Shown here: positions 375 through 35,934 of the stretch, piece after piece
How the letters are laid out: every line of letters starts with the position of its first letter
Position numbering within the stretch: position 1 is the stretch's first letter
Translations under genes and position numbers: made by a program
Notes under the pieces: generated by a model
What the model was told of the DNA's origin: nothing
Database searches by the model: none
What the model saw: only the letters and a program-made list of their open reading frames with translations
From: Spirochaetaceae bacterium bin103
GTDB lineage: Bacteria > Spirochaetota > Spirochaetia > SZUA-6 > Bin103
Direction: 5' to 3'
NCBI GenBank assembly: GCA_002238925.1
Contig: MPNH01000022.1
Span: 1 to 64,000 of the forward strand
Length of the DNA stretch: 64,000 bases

Positions 375-2633
375 ATGCCGCCGCGCAACGGCGCATCCAG
401 ACCATGCGGCTGTGCCGGCGTCATGGGTGGGTGCGGGCCATGCTGCAGAGCGGCGATGAGTCTGACCGCGACGGCACAGATGGAGACCGCCTTTGCCGCC
501 GCCGAGCGTGAGTGCCGGAGAGCGATCCCGAACGTCGGTCTGGAGCACTGCCACGATCTGCTTGGGCTGCCTGGTTGGCCGAGCGCAGCGTGTGACCGGG
601 ATGCCGATGAGGCGGGAGCGGGAGTGGCCAGCGCCGCGGCGCACGGTCTGGTCGCCGCCGGCCAGCAAGCACGGTCGCCCCGTGACCCCGGACGACACGA
701 AGACCGGCATACCGGCGACCGCTGCAGCCCATCTTCGGACCAGCCGGACACAGTCGATGCCCGCCCGGCAGCAGCGGGTGTGCAGCCGGCGGGCCGATTG
801 GAATCGCACGCCGCCACTTCGGACGCTGCCCCGGCCTCGACACCGGAACGAGTCCCGGACAGGCCGGACTCGAATACCGCCACCCGGCACGCGCCACCGC
901 AAGCGGCGCCGGGGCATGCACCGCGGACCGGGCTCGCCGGTGAGGTGGCGGCACACACGCCGGCAGTGCCGGCGAGCCACGCCGCTACGCAGCACCGCGG
1001 CGCCGGGCATGCCGATGCGCTGCCGGCGCGCCTGGAGTCGAGCGGAGCCGCCTCGCCCTCTCCGGCGCCCTCCCGCGCTCCGGTTCCCGCCGCACCCTCC
1101 TCGGACCAGGGCCCGGCTGCACCTCTTCTGCCCCTGACCAGTCGCACGGCGCGGGTCGTGGCCCCATCGGAGCCGCCGCCTACCGCTACGCTCGCACCGA
1201 AGCCGTCCCGAGGTGATCCGCCGGCCGAACTGTCTGCCGTCCCGGTGTCCGCCGCCGCGCTGCTGCACCCGCAGCGCCAGCGCGAGCTGATCGAGCAGGC
1301 CGCCGGCATGACCACCCGCCAGGTCGCCGGCCTGCTGGCGACCGCCGCTCCCGAGGTGGTGCCGCCGCGCGACACGCTGCGCGCGGTGGCACCCGACCGC
1401 TTTACCTTGAAGGTGAGCATCGACCAGGAGTGCGAGCAGGGACTGCGCCAACTGAAGAACCTGATCTCGCACCTGGACCCGCGCATGTCGTGGGGCGACT
1501 TGGTGGCGCGCCTGGTGCGCGAGGCGGTGGCGCGGCACGACCCGCGCGGCGGCGGTCGCCGACCGGGGCGTGCGGGCAGCACGGCAGCATCGTCGCGGCG
1601 GGAGCGGAGCAGGACACCCTCGGTCGTGCCGGCGGCCGCGCCCGCTGGGGGTGGGAGCGGTGATACTCCGGCGCCGCAGGCCGAAACCGCTGCCGCCCGG
1701 GAGCAGCGCGGGGCCGCGATGTCACCCGACGCTGCCCCCGTTCGCGGTTCCGCACCCACTGCACCGCCAGCCGGCGCGAAGGCAGCCGGCGCAACGGCGC
1801 CCGGCACCCGCGCAGCTACCACTGCTTCGGCCACTCCCGCCGCTGCCGCGGTGCCGGTTGTCGAGTCCCACCCGACAGAATCGACGCCGGAGCCTGATTC
1901 GGCTCCCCCCGCCGCTGCTGCGACGCCAGAGGGTCACAGCGCCGGTGCCCGAGTGCCGTGCCCAGCCCGAACGGTGCCCGATCGTCGGCCACAGGATGTC
2001 GAGCAGGCGGAGCCGGCTGAACAGCCCGAACAACGGAATCAGGCGTCCGGTGCTCTGCTCCTGAGGGGGCCAGCTCCGCTGGCAGGCGGCGCCCGCCAGA
2101 CCGGACCGTCCGGCGCGCCGGACGGGACTGCGGCACCGAAGTCTACCAATGGCGGCGCAGCGGAGGGCTCCGGCGCCCCGCCGGTCCCGCAGGACACTCC
2201 TCCGGCGCCGCAGTTCGCCGGCGGCGGCACAGCCGACGGCACTGACCTCCCGCCGGTCTCGCCGGGCGTTCCTCTGGGGCCGGAGTTGGCAGGCAGCGTG
2301 CCGCCTGTGCATGGCGCGGGAGGCACGCCGGTGGGAGCATCACCGCGGTTCACCGGCGATGCTCCGCGCGGTCCACGCCGGGCGCCGGTGCGGCGCCACA
2401 TTCCCGCTGCTATCCGGCGTCACGTCTGGCTACGCGACGGGGGGCGCTGCTGCTATCGCGATCCGCTCACCGGGCGCCGCTGCAATTCCGCCCACCTGCT
2501 ACAGATCGACCACTTGCTGCCGGTTGCCGAGGGCGGCGGTCCGGAGCCGGAGAACCTGGCCTTATCGTGCTTTGCTCATCACCGCATGCGCCACGGCTAC
2601 GGACCGGCGCCGCCGCCGGAGCCGTCGAGGTAG
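375..2633 (+). CDS. HNH endonuclease-domain protein, probably 5'-frameshifted
   Basis: The C-terminal ~75 residues form an HNH nuclease domain: a Cys-rich start (GGRCCY), then QIDHLLPVAEGG, ENLALSC and FAHHRMRHG supply the His-Asn-His core. Upstream, about residues 295-380 (RELIEQAAGMTTRQVAGLL, then APDRFTLKVSID) match the linker domain usual in this HNH family. Two long Pro/Ala-rich, probably disordered stretches (about residues 60-290 and 385-690) separate the conserved parts. The expected N-terminal motif is visible in another frame at 317-455 (LFDYTVRELRFSDAAAQRRI) and continues in this frame as MSLTATAQMETAFAAAE from about 456. A frameshift therefore lies near 455, and the first ~25 residues of the family seem absent. 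It may be a decaying homing- or mobile-type nuclease gene; DNA cleavage activity is unproven. Confidence 0.6.
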   Translation: MPPRNGASRPCGCAGVMGGCGPCCRAAMSLTATAQMETAFAAAERECRRAIPNVGLEHCHDLLGLPGWPSAACDRDADEAGAGVASAAAHGLVAAGQQARSPRDPGRHEDRHTGDRCSPSSDQPDTVDARPAAAGVQPAGRLESHAATSDAAPASTPERVPDRPDSNTATRHAPPQAAPGHAPRTGLAGEVAAHTPAVPASHAATQHRGAGHADALPARLESSGAASPSPAPSRAPVPAAPSSDQGPAAPLLPLTSRTARVVAPSEPPPTATLAPKPSRGDPPAELSAVPVSAAALLHPQRQRELIEQAAGMTTRQVAGLLATAAPEVVPPRDTLRAVAPDRFTLKVSIDQECEQGLRQLKNLISHLDPRMSWGDLVARLVREAVARHDPRGGGRRPGRAGSTAASSRRERSRTPSVVPAAAPAGGGSGDTPAPQAETAAAREQRGAAMSPDAAPVRGSAPTAPPAGAKAAGATAPGTRAATTASATPAAAAVPVVESHPTESTPEPDSAPPAAAATPEGHSAGARVPCPARTVPDRRPQDVEQAEPAEQPEQRNQASGALLLRGPAPLAGGARQTGPSGAPDGTAAPKSTNGGAAEGSGAPPVPQDTPPAPQFAGGGTADGTDLPPVSPGVPLGPELAGSVPPVHGAGGTPVGASPRFTGDAPRGPRRAPVRRHIPAAIRRHVWLRDGGRCCYRDPLTGRRCNSAHLLQIDHLLPVAEGGGPEPENLALSCFAHHRMRHGYGPAPPPEPSR

Positions 2634-2794
2634 CGCGACCTGCACGCCGTGGCCGCGTTCGGACCTCGCCGCCCATGGCGCACTCCTGCACGCTGTCGTC
2701 GATCACGGCCGTTCTGATTCTGCTGCGTCTGGCGCCCGAAACCCAAAGGGAGAAGGGGGTGGCGGAAAATGGGGGCGGGAGGTTAGGATACGGT

Positions 2795-3298
2795 ATGGCT
2801 GATTCTGCGACCGGTGTCCCGGAGGACACGGTTTATCAATCGAGGGTGCGCGTCGAGCGGATCAAGGGTCCGTTGCGCCGCGCTCACCTGCCGGCCGAGT
2901 CCGACCCGGTACTGTTCGGCGTCCACTCCGAGATCGCCGAACACTACGGGGTCGATCCCGAGGTTCACGAGCCGCACACCACGACGCTCGACTACGTGGT
3001 GGCGGCCGCCGGCGGGTGACTGACCGGCACATTGGGAGGCGCGCTGGAAGCGCGCGATATACCCGCCGGTGAGGGCTTTCTCACGGGCGATACGACCGGA
3101 TATATAGGAAAGGAAGGCTCGGTACTGGTGATCCGGGCCGTGCACGTCGACTACCGTCTGCGGCTGTCCCCGGACAAGCGCGCCGCCGCCGAGCGCGCGC
3201 ATCGGTTTCACGCCGACCGCTGTCCGGTGGCCGTTTCCCTGCGCGGCAGCATTCGCATCACCACCGCCCTGCACCTGGAAGATCTGCCCGCTGGTTAG
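2795..3298 (+). CDS. OsmC-family protein, probable selenoprotein (UGA at 3017-3019 read as Sec)
   Basis: Reading through one in-frame TGA gives a 167-residue protein colinear with the OsmC/Ohr family of thiol-dependent peroxide reductases. The TGA is codon 75, in VAAAGG-U-LTGTLGGALEA, where the family has its catalytic (peroxidatic) cysteine. The second conserved cysteine follows in HADRCPVAVSLRGSI, about residue 140. The frame is the same before and after the TGA and conservation is continuous on both sides, so this is not a frameshift. A 6-bp GC stem-loop lies 20 nt after the TGA. The Sec machinery is encoded at 31.0-35.9 kb. The start ATG at 2795 begins MADSATGVPEDTVYQSRV. Expected role: cytoplasmic reduction of organic hydroperoxides. 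Alternative: a nonsense-mutated pseudogene, unlikely given the exact position of the codon. Confidence 0.8.
3039..3055 (+). promoter_or_regulatory. Candidate bacterial SECIS stem-loop
   Basis: Perfect 6-bp stem GCGCGC (3039-3044 with 3050-3055) closing a 5-nt loop TGGAA. The stem starts 20 nt and the loop 26 nt after the UGA of the OsmC-like gene. Bacterial SECIS elements are short hairpins of this kind placed just downstream of the UGA and bound by SelB; the G-containing loop fits. No covariation evidence is available here. Confidence 0.55.
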
Positions 3299-3582: not shown

Positions 3583-3617
3583 GCCGGAGCGGTCCCCGTT
3601 GACCGCCGAAGCAAAAT

Positions 3618-3635
3618 TGTACAGCATTGCTGTAC
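3618..3635. promoter_or_regulatory. Palindromic operator of the yefM-yoeB pair
   Basis: GTACAG (3619-3624) and CTGTAC (3630-3635) form a perfect inverted repeat with 5-nt spacer CATTG, 14 bp upstream of the antitoxin ATG. It contains the hexamer TGTACA, known as the core of the E. coli yefM operator. It is the likely autoregulatory site for the YefM-YoeB complex. Confidence 0.65.
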
Positions 3636-3649
3636 GGAACAAATCTGCC

Positions 3650-3940
3650 ATGATCAACGAAACAACCTACAGCAACGCGCGCGCCCACCTTGCGGCGCTG
3701 ATGGACCAGGTGACCGACACCCGCGAACCGGTCCTGATTCGCCGGCGCGGCGCGGAGCCGGTGGCGCTAGTCGCGGCTGATGAACTTGCCGGCTGGATGG
3801 AAACCGCCTACCTGCTTCGGTCGCCAAAGAACGCGCAACGCCTGACGGACGCCAACCGACGCGTGACCGCCGGCGAGGGCGCTGATTTGACTATCGGACA
3901 ACTGCGTGAACAGCTCGGCCTCGACCGCGAAGGAACGTGA
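3650..3940 (+). CDS. yefM: YefM/Phd-family antitoxin
   Basis: A 96-residue protein whose start MINETTYSNARAHLAALMDQ is typical of the YefM/Phd DNA-binding fold, followed by REPVLIRRRGAEPVALVAAD and the standard EL-x-x-W-x-ET-x-YLL segment. The C-terminal tail (ADLTIGQLREQLGLDREGT) would wrap the toxin. It is predicted to neutralise the YoeB-like RNase encoded next, whose GTG overlaps this stop by 4 bp, and to repress its own promoter through the palindrome just upstream. ATG 3650 is preferred over in-frame starts further upstream because family homology begins there and the operator lies before it. Confidence 0.85.
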   Translation: MINETTYSNARAHLAALMDQVTDTREPVLIRRRGAEPVALVAADELAGWMETAYLLRSPKNAQRLTDANRRVTAGEGADLTIGQLREQLGLDREGT

Positions 3941-4209
3941 CGGAGACCCGCCGCCAAGATGCGCTGTTCGACCAGAATTGCCTCGATGACCTGGTGTACT
4001 GGGTGCGCACGGACCGGAAACGTGCACTCCGAATCCTCAAATTGATCGAAGCGGTAATCCGAGACCCCTTCGACGGACCGGGCAAACCGGAGCCGCTCCG
4101 CGGGCAACTTGCCGGCGCCTGGTCGCGGCGCATCGATCAGGAACATCGCCTGGTCTATCGAATCGAGGATCGCAGCCTACGCTTTCTCGCGGCCCGGTAT
4201 CACTACTGA
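3937..4209 (+). CDS. yoeB: YoeB/Txe-family mRNA interferase toxin
   Basis: A 90-residue RelE-superfamily toxin. Visible family features: a start leading to [18 protein letters not shown], then [26 protein letters not shown] and the C-terminal ARYHY, where YoeB has its catalytic His-Tyr end. YoeB cleaves mRNA in the ribosomal A site. The gene begins at GTG 3937, overlapping the antitoxin stop (GTGA), so the two are translationally coupled. Length and order (antitoxin first) are normal, and no lesion is seen. Confidence 0.88.
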   Translation: [90 protein letters not shown]

Positions 4210-30898: not shown

Positions 30899-31027
30899 GC
30901 ACAAACCGTAATCCAACGCCAAACCGCTGACCACCGCAAAGTGAACACCGAACCGCTCGGCATCCCCGGTATGCGGGCGCGGCTGGTTGAGTTACCCTCT
31001 ATCGAGCGGAGCGGTGCTTCGTATCCG

Positions 31028-31123
31028 GGAGAGTGATGGGTGCCTGGTGGTCCCCGCGGTCTTCAAAACCGTTGTCGACCCTGCCAATGCAGGGCGAGGT
31101 GGGTTCGATTCCTACCCTCTCCG
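31028..31123 (+). tRNA. selC: tRNA-Sec (anticodon TCA)
   Basis: A 96-nt tRNA. Acceptor arm GGAGAGTG pairs with CCCTCTCC (one T-C mismatch), discriminator G at 31123. The anticodon stem-loop is CGGT-CTTCAAA-ACCG with TCA at 31063-31065. A long variable arm has stem CCCTGC/GCAGGG around a CAAT loop, and the T arm is GTGGG-TTCGATT-CCTAC. The long extra arm, extended acceptor and UCA anticodon are diagnostic for selenocysteine tRNA. CCA is not encoded. selD starts about 32 bp downstream. Confidence 0.95.
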
Positions 31124-31155
31124 TTCTTACCTTGCAAGCGAAGGGGGTGATCGGG

Positions 31156-32208
<1,053 letters not shown>

Positions 32209-32440
32209 CGCGGTCGGAATAGCCGCCCGAGAACACCCGCTGCGCGCCTTCGGACGGTCGCGATCTAACACGCCGGAACAGCGGCGTCTTCCGCCACGCT
32301 TCCGAGTGGCGCCGCGCAGCCGCGGCGATGATCGGCGTGGCTGCGATCGCCCGGGACGGGGAGCCGACGGCGGAGTGCGCACTAGTGTACGGCTTGATTC
32401 GTGCCACTGACGCCGCGGATGTGGCACAATCGACGGTGCG

Positions 32441-33979
32441 ATGAACAGCGCAGACGGCGGACCGCCGCGCGCGGGTAACCGCGACACCACGCACGCGCGC
32501 CCGGCCCGCGGCAGCCGGTATGCGTCGATTCCGCCGGTCAATCGACTGGTAGCCGAACTGGCCGATCTGGGCCTCCCGCACCGGTTGTGCGTCGACCTGG
32601 TGCGGCGAGAGCTTGACCTGATCCGGGCCGCCGATCCGGTTCCGCCGCGCGCCGTGATCGAGGCGCGGGTGCGCACTGCCGCGGTGCAACTGGCCGCCGC
32701 CCGCCCGCGCCCGGTGATCAACGCCACCGGCGTGCTGCTGCACACCAACCTGGGCCGTGCTCCGCTGGGCGACGCGTCTGCCGCACTGGCGGTAGCTACC
32801 GGAGGCTACAGCAACCTTGAGCTGGATCTGGTCTCCGGGACGCGCGGCAGCCGCGGGCTGTACGTGGAGCGTAGCCTGGCTGCCCTGTGCGAAGCGGAAG
32901 CCGCTACCGTGGTAAACAACTGCGCCGCCGCCCTGCTGCTGGTGGCCAGCGCGGTGACCACAAATCCGGAACGCCGCGAGGTGATCGTGTCGCGCGGCGA
33001 GCTGATCCAGATTGGCGGCGGGTTCCGCATTCCCGACATCCTTACCGCGGCGGGCGCGCGGTTGCGGGAGGTCGGCACCACCAATCAGACCACCGCGGCC
33101 GACTATGCCGGCGCCTGCGGCGAGCGCACCGCGGCGCTGCTGACGGTGCATCGCAGCAACTTCGTCATGGAGGGGTTCGTGGCCGCGCCGCGGCTCGCCG
33201 AGTTGCGCGGCGTAGCCGCCGGCGCCGGAGTACCGCTGATCGCCGATCTGGGCAGCGGCGCCGTGACTCGCACCGACGCCGTCCACGGACTGCCGCGCGA
33301 GCCGCAGCCGCAGGAGGTGCTGGCCGGCGGCGCCACGCTCGTATGCTTCAGCGGCGACAAGCTGCTCGGCGGCCCGCAGGCAGGCGTGATTGCCGGCGAT
33401 GCGGCGTGGGTCGCGCGCCTGAAGGCGCATCCGCTGTTCCGCGCGCTACGCCTCGACAAGGTGGCGCTGGCTCTGCTGCAGCACACGGTAGACCGGCACC
33501 TGAGCGACCCCGGCTCGGTTCCGCTGCAGGAGATGCTGCACGCGCCGGTGGCCGAGTTGCGGGCCCGGGCGGCGGCTATCGTGGGCCGCCTGCCGGCGCC
33601 CCTGCAGGGTGCCGCCGCCGACTGCGCGAGCCGCCTCGGCGGCGGCACCCTGCCCACCGCCACGCTGCCCTCCTGCGGCATCGCCATCGCGCTGCCCGGC
33701 GGCAGCGCCGACGCCTTCGCCGCCGCCCTGCGCCGCGCCACTCCGCCGGTAATCGGCCACATTCACCGCGAACGGATCGTGCTCGACCTGCGCACCGTCC
33801 CGCCGCACCAGGACGACGCGTTGACGGCGGCGCTCGCCGAGGCCGCGACAGCGCTACGACACGCATCAACGGCCGACGTACGCCATGAAGCGCCGCAAAG
33901 TCCCGGCCCGCCGCGCGACGACACGGTCGTTGGGCCACCCCCGGCGGCAAGCGCAACGTCGGCTGCAGTACAACAATGA
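32441..33979 (+). CDS. selA: L-seryl-tRNA(Sec) selenium transferase
   Basis: A 512-residue PLP enzyme that converts seryl-tRNA(Sec) to selenocysteinyl-tRNA(Sec) with selenophosphate. Motifs: SIPPVNRLVAELADLGLP, RPVINATGVLLHTNLGRAPL, YSNLELDLVSGTRGSRG, VVNNCAAALLL, VGTTNQTTAADY and the PLP lysine K307 in CFSGDKLLGGPQAG. The N-terminal ~25 residues are variable. The 3' end overlaps selB by 4 bp (ATGA). A 232-bp gap separates it from selD. Length is slightly above the ~460-470 usual for the family. Confidence 0.95.
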   Translation: MNSADGGPPRAGNRDTTHARPARGSRYASIPPVNRLVAELADLGLPHRLCVDLVRRELDLIRAADPVPPRAVIEARVRTAAVQLAAARPRPVINATGVLLHTNLGRAPLGDASAALAVATGGYSNLELDLVSGTRGSRGLYVERSLAALCEAEAATVVNNCAAALLLVASAVTTNPERREVIVSRGELIQIGGGFRIPDILTAAGARLREVGTTNQTTAADYAGACGERTAALLTVHRSNFVMEGFVAAPRLAELRGVAAGAGVPLIADLGSGAVTRTDAVHGLPREPQPQEVLAGGATLVCFSGDKLLGGPQAGVIAGDAAWVARLKAHPLFRALRLDKVALALLQHTVDRHLSDPGSVPLQEMLHAPVAELRARAAAIVGRLPAPLQGAAADCASRLGGGTLPTATLPSCGIAIALPGGSADAFAAALRRATPPVIGHIHRERIVLDLRTVPPHQDDALTAALAEAATALRHASTADVRHEAPQSPGPPRDDTVVGPPPAASATSAAVQQ

Positions 33980-35934
33980 CCACGTACCACTACATCGCCG
34001 CTACGGCCGGCCACATTGACCATGGCAAGAGTTCGCTGGTGCAGGCCCTTACCGGCACCGACCCCGACCGCCTGCCGGAGGAGAAGCGGCGCGGCATCAC
34101 CATCGAACTCGGTTTCGCGCACATGGCACTGCCGGTGCCCGACCGCGACCTCAGCCTGCTGGTCGGAATCGTCGACGTGCCCGGTCACGAGGATTTCGTC
34201 AAGAACATGGTTGCCGGCGTCGGCGCGGTGGACATTGCCCTGCTCGTGGTGGCTGCCAACGAGGGCTGGATGCCACAGACCGAGGAGCACCTGCAGATCG
34301 TGGAGTACCTCGGCGCGCGCTCGGGGGCGATCGTCCTCACCAAGGCGGATCTGCTCCCGGACCTGGCGGCGCGGGTGGCCGAGATCCGATCGGCAGTGGC
34401 CGGCAGCGCGTTCGCCGACTGCCCCATCGTGCCGGTTTCGGCGCTCGACGGCACCGGCATCGACGCACTGCGCCAGACGATCGGCGCTCAGTTGCAGTCA
34501 CTGCCTCCCCCGCCCCCAGCCGGCACGCCGCGCCTCGCCGTGGACCGCGCCTTTGCCGTGGCCGGCGCCGGCACGGTCGTTACCGGCACGCTGTCCGGCG
34601 GTTCCCTGCGGCGCGGCCAGGAGGTGGAAGCGTCGCCGGGCGGGGCACGCTTCCGCATCCGCGGCGTGGAGAGTTTCAACCAGCCCGCCGACAAGACCCG
34701 CCCTGCCACTCGCGTGGCCCTGAATCTCGCCCCCGCCGGCTCCTCGCGCGCGGCTCGACCGCCGCGCCGAGGCGACCTCATCACTGCTCCGGCCAGCGTG
34801 ACCGCAAGCGCTTACCTCGATGCACTGGTCCGGCGCAGCCGGCGAGCCAGCACCGAACGCGGCGCCCCGCTGCTACGCGACGGACTTCGGGTGCGCGTTC
34901 ATCACGGCACCGCAAACCTGCCCGGCACCGTGCGCCTGCAGGCGGGCCGCACGCACGGCGGCTTGCAGCCCGGCGCATCCGCGCTGGCGCGGATTCACCT
35001 GGATGAGCCGCGCGCCCTGCTGATCGGCGACCGCTTCGTGCTGCGCGACTGGTCGCAGCGCCACACCCTGGCCGGCGGCGTGGTACTGGACCCGGCGCCG
35101 CAGCGGCCGTTGCGCGACCCCGTGCAGCGCGCTCAGTTGCAGGCTATGGGCGACGCCCCGCGGCAGGTCGCGTCGATCCTCCTGGCCCGCGCGGCAGGTT
35201 ACGGCATGGTGGCGCTGCAGGAGTTTGCCTGCCTGGTGCCGGTCACCCCGGATATCCTGGAACGCACCGCCAATACGCTCGCCGCGGACGGCCGGCTGCG
35301 GGTCTTCGACCACTTCGCCGCCAGCGCCGAGTGGTTCGACAGGCAGGTGGCCGGCGCCGCGGAAGCGGTCGATGCCGAGTTGCGCGATCATCCCGAGCGC
35401 GCCGGGGTAGCGGTAACCGCGCTGCACACCGCAGTGGCGCCACCGCCGGGGGCCCTCCCCCGCCGCGCGGCCGGCGCCCTGCGCGATGCCGTGCTCAACG
35501 CGTTGGCGGAACGCGGCTATCGCCGCTCGGGAGCGCTGATCCGCCCACCGGGGCATGCGGCAGCACTCCCTCCCCATCTCACGCGCGCGGCGAAAGCCAT
35601 GCGCGCCACCCTCGCCGCGGCGCCCCTGGCACCGCCGAGCCGCGGTCAACTTGCCGCCGACCGCACCGGCCAAGCAGTACTGGAATTCCTGATCAGCTCG
35701 GGGGAGGTGGTGCAACTCGACCCGGAGGTGGTACTTGCCGCTGACGCCTGCGACCAGGCGCGCGCGGCTGTCGTTGCCTACCTGCGCCGTCACCAGCCCG
35801 CCACGACCAGTGCCCTGCGCACGGCAGTCGGTACGAATCGCCGGGTCATCATCCCGCTGCTCGAACGCCTCGACCGCGACGGCGTAACGCTACGCGTCGG
35901 TAACGAACGCCGCCTCGCGAAACCCGACGCCTGA
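33976..35934 (+). CDS. selB: Selenocysteine-specific translation elongation factor SelB
   Basis: A 652-residue GTPase. G1 is [15 protein letters not shown], then the switch region [15 protein letters not shown]3 [11 protein letters not shown] and NKxD-type VLTKADL. Domains II-III follow with [20 protein letters not shown]. The C-terminal ~200 residues are winged helices that bind the SECIS hairpin ([37 protein letters not shown]). It delivers Sec-tRNA to ribosomes paused at UGA. It is coupled to selA by ATGA. Confidence 0.95.

What the first reader, a model, noticed from the sequence alone, without database searches (positions are those of the whole stretch)
2795..3298. OsmC-family selenoprotein: UGA exactly at the catalytic cysteine
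The OsmC-like gene has a single in-frame TGA (3017-3019) at the peroxidatic cysteine position (AAAGG-U-LTGTLGG). The frame is uninterrupted on both sides, the second conserved Cys is intact, and a 6-bp stem-loop lies 20 nt downstream. The same window encodes tRNA-Sec, SelD, SelA and SelB. Standard gene calling would report two fragments or a pseudogene. Sec in OsmC-like proteins is rare, so this may be a seldom-described peroxidase form.
Basis: partly seen in the sequence, partly recalled or inferred. Interest (0 to 1): 0.9.

Follow-up and report, generated by a model that had tools for sequence, protein, structure and literature searches.

The report
Selenium-containing OsmC-like redox protein
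The gene really is a selenoprotein: a stop codon in the middle is read as selenocysteine at the reactive position of an OsmC-type redox protein, and it belongs to a widespread branch that differs from the one OsmC-like selenoprotein already catalogued.

Summary
Confirmed. Window 2795-3298 (+) is one gene of 167 codons, with a single in-frame TGA (3017-3019) where OsmC-fold proteins carry their first redox cysteine. The open frame alone proves nothing: 90 TGA codons in this GC-rich window have 75 or more open codons on both sides. Homologues settle it. Of 162 distinct relatives whose site could be read, 128 have TGA, 33 have Cys and 1 has Asp. The codons of a hairpin starting 19 nt after the TGA are nearly frozen at silent sites in TGA forms and free in Cys forms. 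A sister branch shows covarying pairs in its own hairpin. tRNA-Sec, SelD, SelA and SelB lie in the window, and all three protein genes end in ordinary TGA.

OsmC-like selenoproteins have been known since 2005 (motif UxxT; NCBIfam NF041052). This gene is not in that family: its motif is U-x-x-G-T, it misses the model, and it falls in a separate, fully supported clade, found in Chloroflexota, Desulfobacterales, Acidobacteriota, Actinomycetota and Gemmatimonadota. The Ohr catalytic Glu is absent and an Asp one residue later is invariant, so 'peroxidase' is plausible but unproven. Verdict: a real selenoprotein, a new variant of a known kind.

The parts
2795..3298 (+). OsmC-fold selenoprotein gene, 167 codons, ATG to TAG, read through TGA
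   Evidence: same-genus orthologue 96% identical, dN/dS about 0.12 before and 0.09 after the TGA
3017..3019 (+). TGA codon for selenocysteine 75, at the first redox-Cys position
   Evidence: 128 of 162 distinct relatives have TGA here, 33 have TGC/TGT; the column is Cys in 32 of 34 other OsmC-like proteins
3039..3055 (+). SECIS-like hairpin, 7-bp stem, apical loop GGA (3046-3048), 26 nt between UGA and loop
   Evidence: silent sites frozen in Sec forms and free in Cys forms; fits the published bacterial SECIS constraints (PMC13188914)
3221..3223 (+). Cys143, second redox-Cys position (FHADRCPVA)
   Evidence: Cys in 123 of 123 readable Sec members and 33 of 33 Cys members; aligned with the second Cys of PDB 2onf
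2777..2782 (+). GGGAGG, possible ribosome-binding site 12 nt before the ATG
   Evidence: read from the sequence; inference
31027..31123 (+). tRNA-Sec (anticodon TCA)
   Evidence: ARAGORN; Rfam RF01852, 62.1 bits against 47
31279..32208 (+). SelD, selenophosphate synthetase, stop TGA
   Evidence: TIGR00476 E=3.9e-101; stop codon
32441..33979 (+). SelA, selenocysteine synthase, stop TGA
   Evidence: TIGR00474 E=3.8e-130
33976..35934 (+). SelB, Sec-specific elongation factor, stop TGA
   Evidence: TIGR00475 276 bits against 242

Best explanation
The gene encodes an OsmC-fold selenoprotein. SelB carrying Sec-tRNA(Sec) recognises the hairpin at 3039-3055 and inserts selenocysteine at UGA 3017-3019, giving Sec75 on the central helix. 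Sec75 most likely acts as the reactive selenolate: it attacks an oxidised or electrophilic substrate, probably a hydroperoxide or disulfide, and the resulting selenenyl intermediate is resolved by Cys143 as a Se-S bridge, which a cellular thiol then reduces. Supported by sequence and comparison: the recoding, the hairpin, the fold, and the two redox positions. Inferred: the Se-S cycle, the peroxide or disulfide substrate, and the reductant. The protein belongs to a distinct U-x-x-G-T clade of the OsmC superfamily, not to Ohr/OsmC proper and not to the catalogued UxxT OsmC-like selenoprotein.
For: TGA/Cys pairs at one column: 128 TGA, 33 Cys, 1 Asp. Silent-site freeze at codons 82-87: normalised codon entropy at columns 82, 83, 84, 86 and 87 is 0.16, 0.18, 0.04, 0.05 and 0.44 in Sec forms, against a background of 0.83; the same columns that can be scored in Cys forms give 0.56-0.58, against a background of 0.48. 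On 65 sequences the freeze had permutation p = 5e-6. The sister UMMGT branch has a covarying stem, 16 double-changed cells, 0 of 500 shuffles as high. Sec machinery is in the window; SelB is above cut-off in 25 of 31 genomes carrying the gene. SelD, SelA and SelB end in TGA, and several homologues end their own gene in TGA, so UGA is not reassigned genome-wide. A second selenoprotein (UxxC Prx-like) is in the same genome and its sister species. AlphaFold2 model pLDDT 91; the named top Foldseek hits are OsmC/Ohr-type structures. Purifying selection on both sides of the TGA.
Against: No direct proof of Sec. The ULTGT hairpin itself is too conserved to show compensatory changes (0 double changes). 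The Ohr catalytic Glu at Cp-10 (Glu51/Cys61 in XfOhr, PMC5962072) is absent: that position is L, I, V or F in all 160 members read, which weakens a classical Ohr mechanism. No conserved neighbours point to a substrate. No model coordinates were available to measure the 75-143 distance.
Confidence: 0.85

Rival explanations
1. Pseudogene, sequencing error, or a true stop giving two fragments.
For: A standard caller would report fragments, and a TGA with open flanks is common in this window.
Against: The same TGA occurs in 128 distinct relatives from several phyla and in the sister species. Selection is purifying on both sides, and silent sites are constrained only where TGA is present.
Confidence: 0.01
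2. UGA is reassigned to an ordinary amino acid (for example Trp or Gly) in this genome.
For: None beyond the open frame.
Against: SelD, SelA and SelB in the window stop at TGA. Several homologues use TGA both inside and as the terminator of the same gene. tRNA-Sec is present.
Confidence: 0.01
3. Sec is inserted, but the protein is not a peroxidase: it is another selenol/thiol redox or transfer protein, for example a disulfide reductase or a handler of persulfide, sulfide or an electrophile.
For: The Ohr Glu at -10 is lost and an invariant Asp stands at -9. Clade-specific H44, Y51 and the G-T motif are conserved. TIGR03561/TIGR03562 scores are far below their cut-offs. The best structural match by Foldseek E-value is 1ml8, which I recall as E. 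coli YhfA, a family of unknown function.
Against: Both redox positions of the OsmC fold are kept, and Sec at a peroxidatic position is the usual setting for peroxide chemistry (general knowledge).
Confidence: 0.35
4. It is simply the OsmC-like selenoprotein published in 2005, with a loosely written motif.
For: Same superfamily, same Sec position, also reported as OsmC-like.
Against: A genuine NF041052 member (L037) has U-M-L-T, matching UxxT, and scores 150.7 bits; no member of the present clade that was scanned passes 28 bits against a cut-off of 95, and the window protein has no match. L037 groups with Cys OsmCs away from this clade. One genome, G086, carries both families.
Confidence: 0.1

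Closest known systems
OsmC-like selenoprotein, UxxT (Zhang, Fomenko and Gladyshev 2005, PMC1088965; NCBIfam NF041052)
   Same: OsmC fold, one Sec at the first redox-Cys position, second Cys kept, predicted bacterial SECIS
   Different: Motif U-x-x-G-T instead of UxxT; misses the NF041052 cut-off by a wide margin; separate clade in the tree
Ohr / OsmC thiol peroxidases (TIGR03561, TIGR03562)
   Same: Fold, two redox positions, helix-borne reactive residue
   Different: No Glu at Cp-10, invariant Asp at Cp-9; no Pro eleven before the reactive residue; scores far below the family cut-offs; Sec instead of Cys
COG1765 / YhfA-like OsmC proteins (structures 1ml8, 2onf)
   Same: Best structural matches by Foldseek E-value; GG just before the reactive residue in some; acidic residue at -9 in many
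   Different: Only 12-17% identity; Cys not Sec; function of that group unknown

Membership tests
OsmC superfamily (PF02566) | Match to the Pfam domain above the curated cut-off | tested here: met
   40.2 bits against 27.5; all 30 members of A1 match PF02566
OsmC superfamily (PF02566) | OsmC fold | tested here: met
   AlphaFold2 pLDDT 91; named top PDB matches are OsmC/Ohr-type structures, E 3e-8 to 1e-5
OsmC superfamily (PF02566) | Two redox positions, first on the central helix, second in a C-P type site | tested here: met
   Sec75 and Cys143 align with the two Cys of other OsmC-like proteins
Ohr / OsmC thiol peroxidases | Catalytic Glu ten residues before the peroxidatic Cys | tested here: not met
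   Position -10 is L, I, V or F in 160 of 160; Asp at -9 in 160 of 160; Ohr numbering from PMC5962072
Ohr / OsmC thiol peroxidases | NCBIfam TIGR03561 or TIGR03562 above cut-off | tested here: not met
   Members scanned score about 17-25 bits against cut-offs of 85.8-88.9; window protein has no match
Ohr / OsmC thiol peroxidases | Organic hydroperoxide reductase activity | not testable with these tools
   Needs enzyme assay
OsmC-like selenoprotein UxxT (NF041052) | UxxT motif | tested here: not met
   All 128 Sec members have G at +3 and T at +4
OsmC-like selenoprotein UxxT (NF041052) | NF041052 above cut-off of 95 bits | tested here: not met
   Window protein no match; best clade member scanned 27.8 bits; positive control L037 150.7
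Bacterial selenoprotein | In-frame UGA paired with Cys in homologues | tested here: met
   128 TGA, 33 Cys
Bacterial selenoprotein | SECIS: 4-16 bp stem, 3-9 nt loop, G in its first two bases, 16-37 nt from UGA to loop | tested here: met
   7 bp, loop GGA, 26 nt
Bacterial selenoprotein | tRNA-Sec, SelA, SelB, SelD in the genome | tested here: met
   All four in the window
Bacterial selenoprotein | Sec shown in the protein | not testable with these tools
   Needs mass spectrometry or 75Se labelling

The most novel reading that the evidence does not exclude
U-x-x-G-T proteins are a separate, widespread OsmC selenoprotein family in which Sec is the ancestral state and the Cys forms of Thermoleophilia are later Sec-to-Cys replacements that lost the SECIS hairpin. 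Their altered active site (Asp at -9, nearly invariant His, invariant Tyr and Thr) would carry out chemistry different from Ohr.
Probability: 0.4. Interest if true: 0.65.

Novelty: new variant of a known kind. Interest (0 to 1): 0.5.

Why it matters
Gene finders cut this gene in two, so a widespread redox enzyme is probably missing from many annotations of Chloroflexota, Desulfobacterales, Acidobacteriota and Acidimicrobiia. The May 2026 inventory of prokaryotic selenoproteins (119 families and subfamilies) lists one PF02566 entry, UxxT, and no NCBIfam model reaches its cut-off on the clade members scanned. The paired Sec and Cys forms, with a hairpin constrained only in Sec forms, make a clean test case for what Sec adds in the OsmC fold and for the direction of Sec/Cys exchange. 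It also gives OsmC active sites without the Ohr Glu a reason to be assayed.

Tried and rejected
1. Sec-only family: after the first searches every full-length member had TGA (86 of 86) and I took the clade for Sec-exclusive. A further search in Thermoleophilia found 33 distinct Cys forms, so I dropped the claim.
2. Phylogenetic profile with tRNA-Sec: nearly all genomes of the sampled Chloroflexota class have it, with or without this gene, so it does not discriminate.
3. Gene neighbourhood across about 30 loci: no partner shared by more than four loci at a consistent place.
4. Covariation in the ULTGT hairpin: none, because the stem hardly varies; the silent-site test was used instead.
5. Viral contigs: no relatives.
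7. Two homemade regular-expression scans missed most loci and a first read of paralogues ignored strand; they were replaced.

Full report
WHAT IS THERE. Window 2795-3298 (+) reads as one protein of 167 residues with a single TGA at 3017-3019 (residue 75) and a TAG at the end. It matches Pfam OsmC above the curated cut-off and is the only OsmC match found in the genome. An ORF listing splits it into 2567-3019 and 3032-3298. The openness of the frame is not evidence by itself: 90 TGA codons in the six frames of this window have 75 or more open codons on each side.

RECODING. A scan of about 85,000 prokaryotic genomes with peptide patterns that do not include the site found 30 relatives, and TGA stands at the same position in all of them, including Rubrobacter marinus, where the gene has frame breaks elsewhere. 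The same-genus genome G002 has the gene at 96% identity with the same TGA; dN/dS is about 0.12 before it and 0.09 after it. Profile searches of six further draws of genomes, about 1,800 in all, brought the set to 162 distinct relatives with the site readable: 128 TGA, 33 Cys, 1 Asp. The Cys forms were met only in the draw from the class of G083 (Thermoleophilia, judged from the Solirubrobacterales title of L025). In the wider superfamily the column is Cys in 32 of 34 other OsmC-like proteins and the second position in 27 of 34. These counts follow the groups I chose to search and are not a census.

HAIRPIN. From 19 nt after the TGA, 3039-3055 forms a 7-bp stem with loop GGA, 26 nt between UGA and loop, inside the published bacterial SECIS limits (PMC13188914). 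Codons 82, 83, 84, 86 and 87 are almost frozen at silent positions in Sec forms: entropies 0.16, 0.18, 0.04, 0.05 and 0.44 against 0.83 elsewhere (p = 5e-6 on 65 sequences). In the 33 Cys forms the scorable columns are as free as the rest, 0.56-0.58 against 0.48. The constraint therefore goes with the TGA, not with the protein. The stem of the ULTGT group is too invariant to covary, but the sister UMMGT group has its own stem with 16 double-changed cells, more than any of 500 shuffles.

MACHINERY. tRNA-Sec, SelD, SelA and SelB lie together at 31027-35934. All three protein genes end in TGA, so UGA is still a stop here. SelB is above cut-off in 25 of 31 genomes that carry the gene; some of the others show only SelB fragments, as expected of partial or error-prone assemblies. 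tRNA-Sec presence did not discriminate between carriers and non-carriers in the one class tested. The same genome and its sister hold another selenoprotein, a Prx-like protein with FW-U-TYC.

FOLD AND ACTIVE SITE. The AlphaFold2 model (pLDDT 91) matches OsmC/Ohr structures in the PDB. The residue at 75 and Cys143 align with the two Cys of 2onf. In Xylella Ohr the peroxidatic Cys61 is served by Arg19 and Glu51, the Glu ten residues before it (PMC5962072). Here the residue ten before is L, I, V or F in all 160 members read, and the residue nine before is always Asp. So the protein works on the OsmC plan but is not an Ohr by that test. The cycle I think most likely is selenolate attack, a Se-S bridge to Cys143, and reduction by a cellular thiol; substrate and reductant are inferred. 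No conserved neighbours help.

RELATION TO KNOWN SELENOPROTEINS. OsmC-like selenoproteins were reported in the Sargasso Sea (3 sequences, UxxT; PMC1088965) and Global Ocean Sampling (5 sequences, UxxT; PMC2398784), and the 2026 inventory lists one PF02566 entry, UxxT (PMC13188914). NCBIfam NF041052 models such a family. A genuine member, L037, reads U-M-L-T and scores 150.7 bits; clade members scanned here reach at most 27.8 against a cut-off of 95, and the window protein has no match. In the tree the U-x-x-G-T clade stands apart with 100/100 support, L037 lies among Cys OsmCs, and L053 is a third TGA-bearing OsmC-like gene outside both. Genome G086 has both families. I therefore call this a new variant of a known kind. 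Discovery methods lean on close Cys homologues (PMC12013277); I found these only in one class, which may be why the clade was passed over (inference).

DIRECTION OF CHANGE. With OsmC outgroups the Cys forms nest within Sec forms (SH-aLRT 94 for the Cys clade; 99 and 97 for the enclosing forks), as expected if Cys replaced Sec. The branch to the outgroup is very long and the tree was a quick one, so this is tentative.

Noticed in passing
L145 (G000:C2:15667-16038, - strand) and L146 (G002:C135): Prx-like AhpC/TSA-family gene with an in-frame TGA in FW-U-TYC (UxxC), conserved in the sister species: a second selenoprotein of this genome.
   Followed up: partly
L053:1501-1932: Another OsmC-like gene with TGA at the redox-Cys position (LAD-U-TIVTL) and a CP second site, 52 bits to NF041052 (cut-off 95): possibly a third Sec lineage in the superfamily.
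   Followed up: partly
L032:5998-6403: Rubrobacter marinus SCSIO 52915 carries the gene with its TGA and hairpin but with frame breaks before and after it: decayed gene or assembly errors.
   Followed up: no
L193 (G1395:C43:5575-6018): Family member with Asp at the redox position and Ser at the second: probably a redox-dead paralogue.
   Followed up: no
window 3599-4209: YefM/Phd antitoxin and YoeB toxin pair just downstream of the selenoprotein gene.
   Followed up: partly
window 375-2633: 752-residue ORF with a weak HNH endonuclease match at its C-terminus, upstream of the gene.
   Followed up: no
window 3020-3022 and homologues: The codon after the UGA is almost always CTG in the ULxGT group (81 of 87), a silent-site constraint outside the hairpin, perhaps UGA context.
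   Followed up: no
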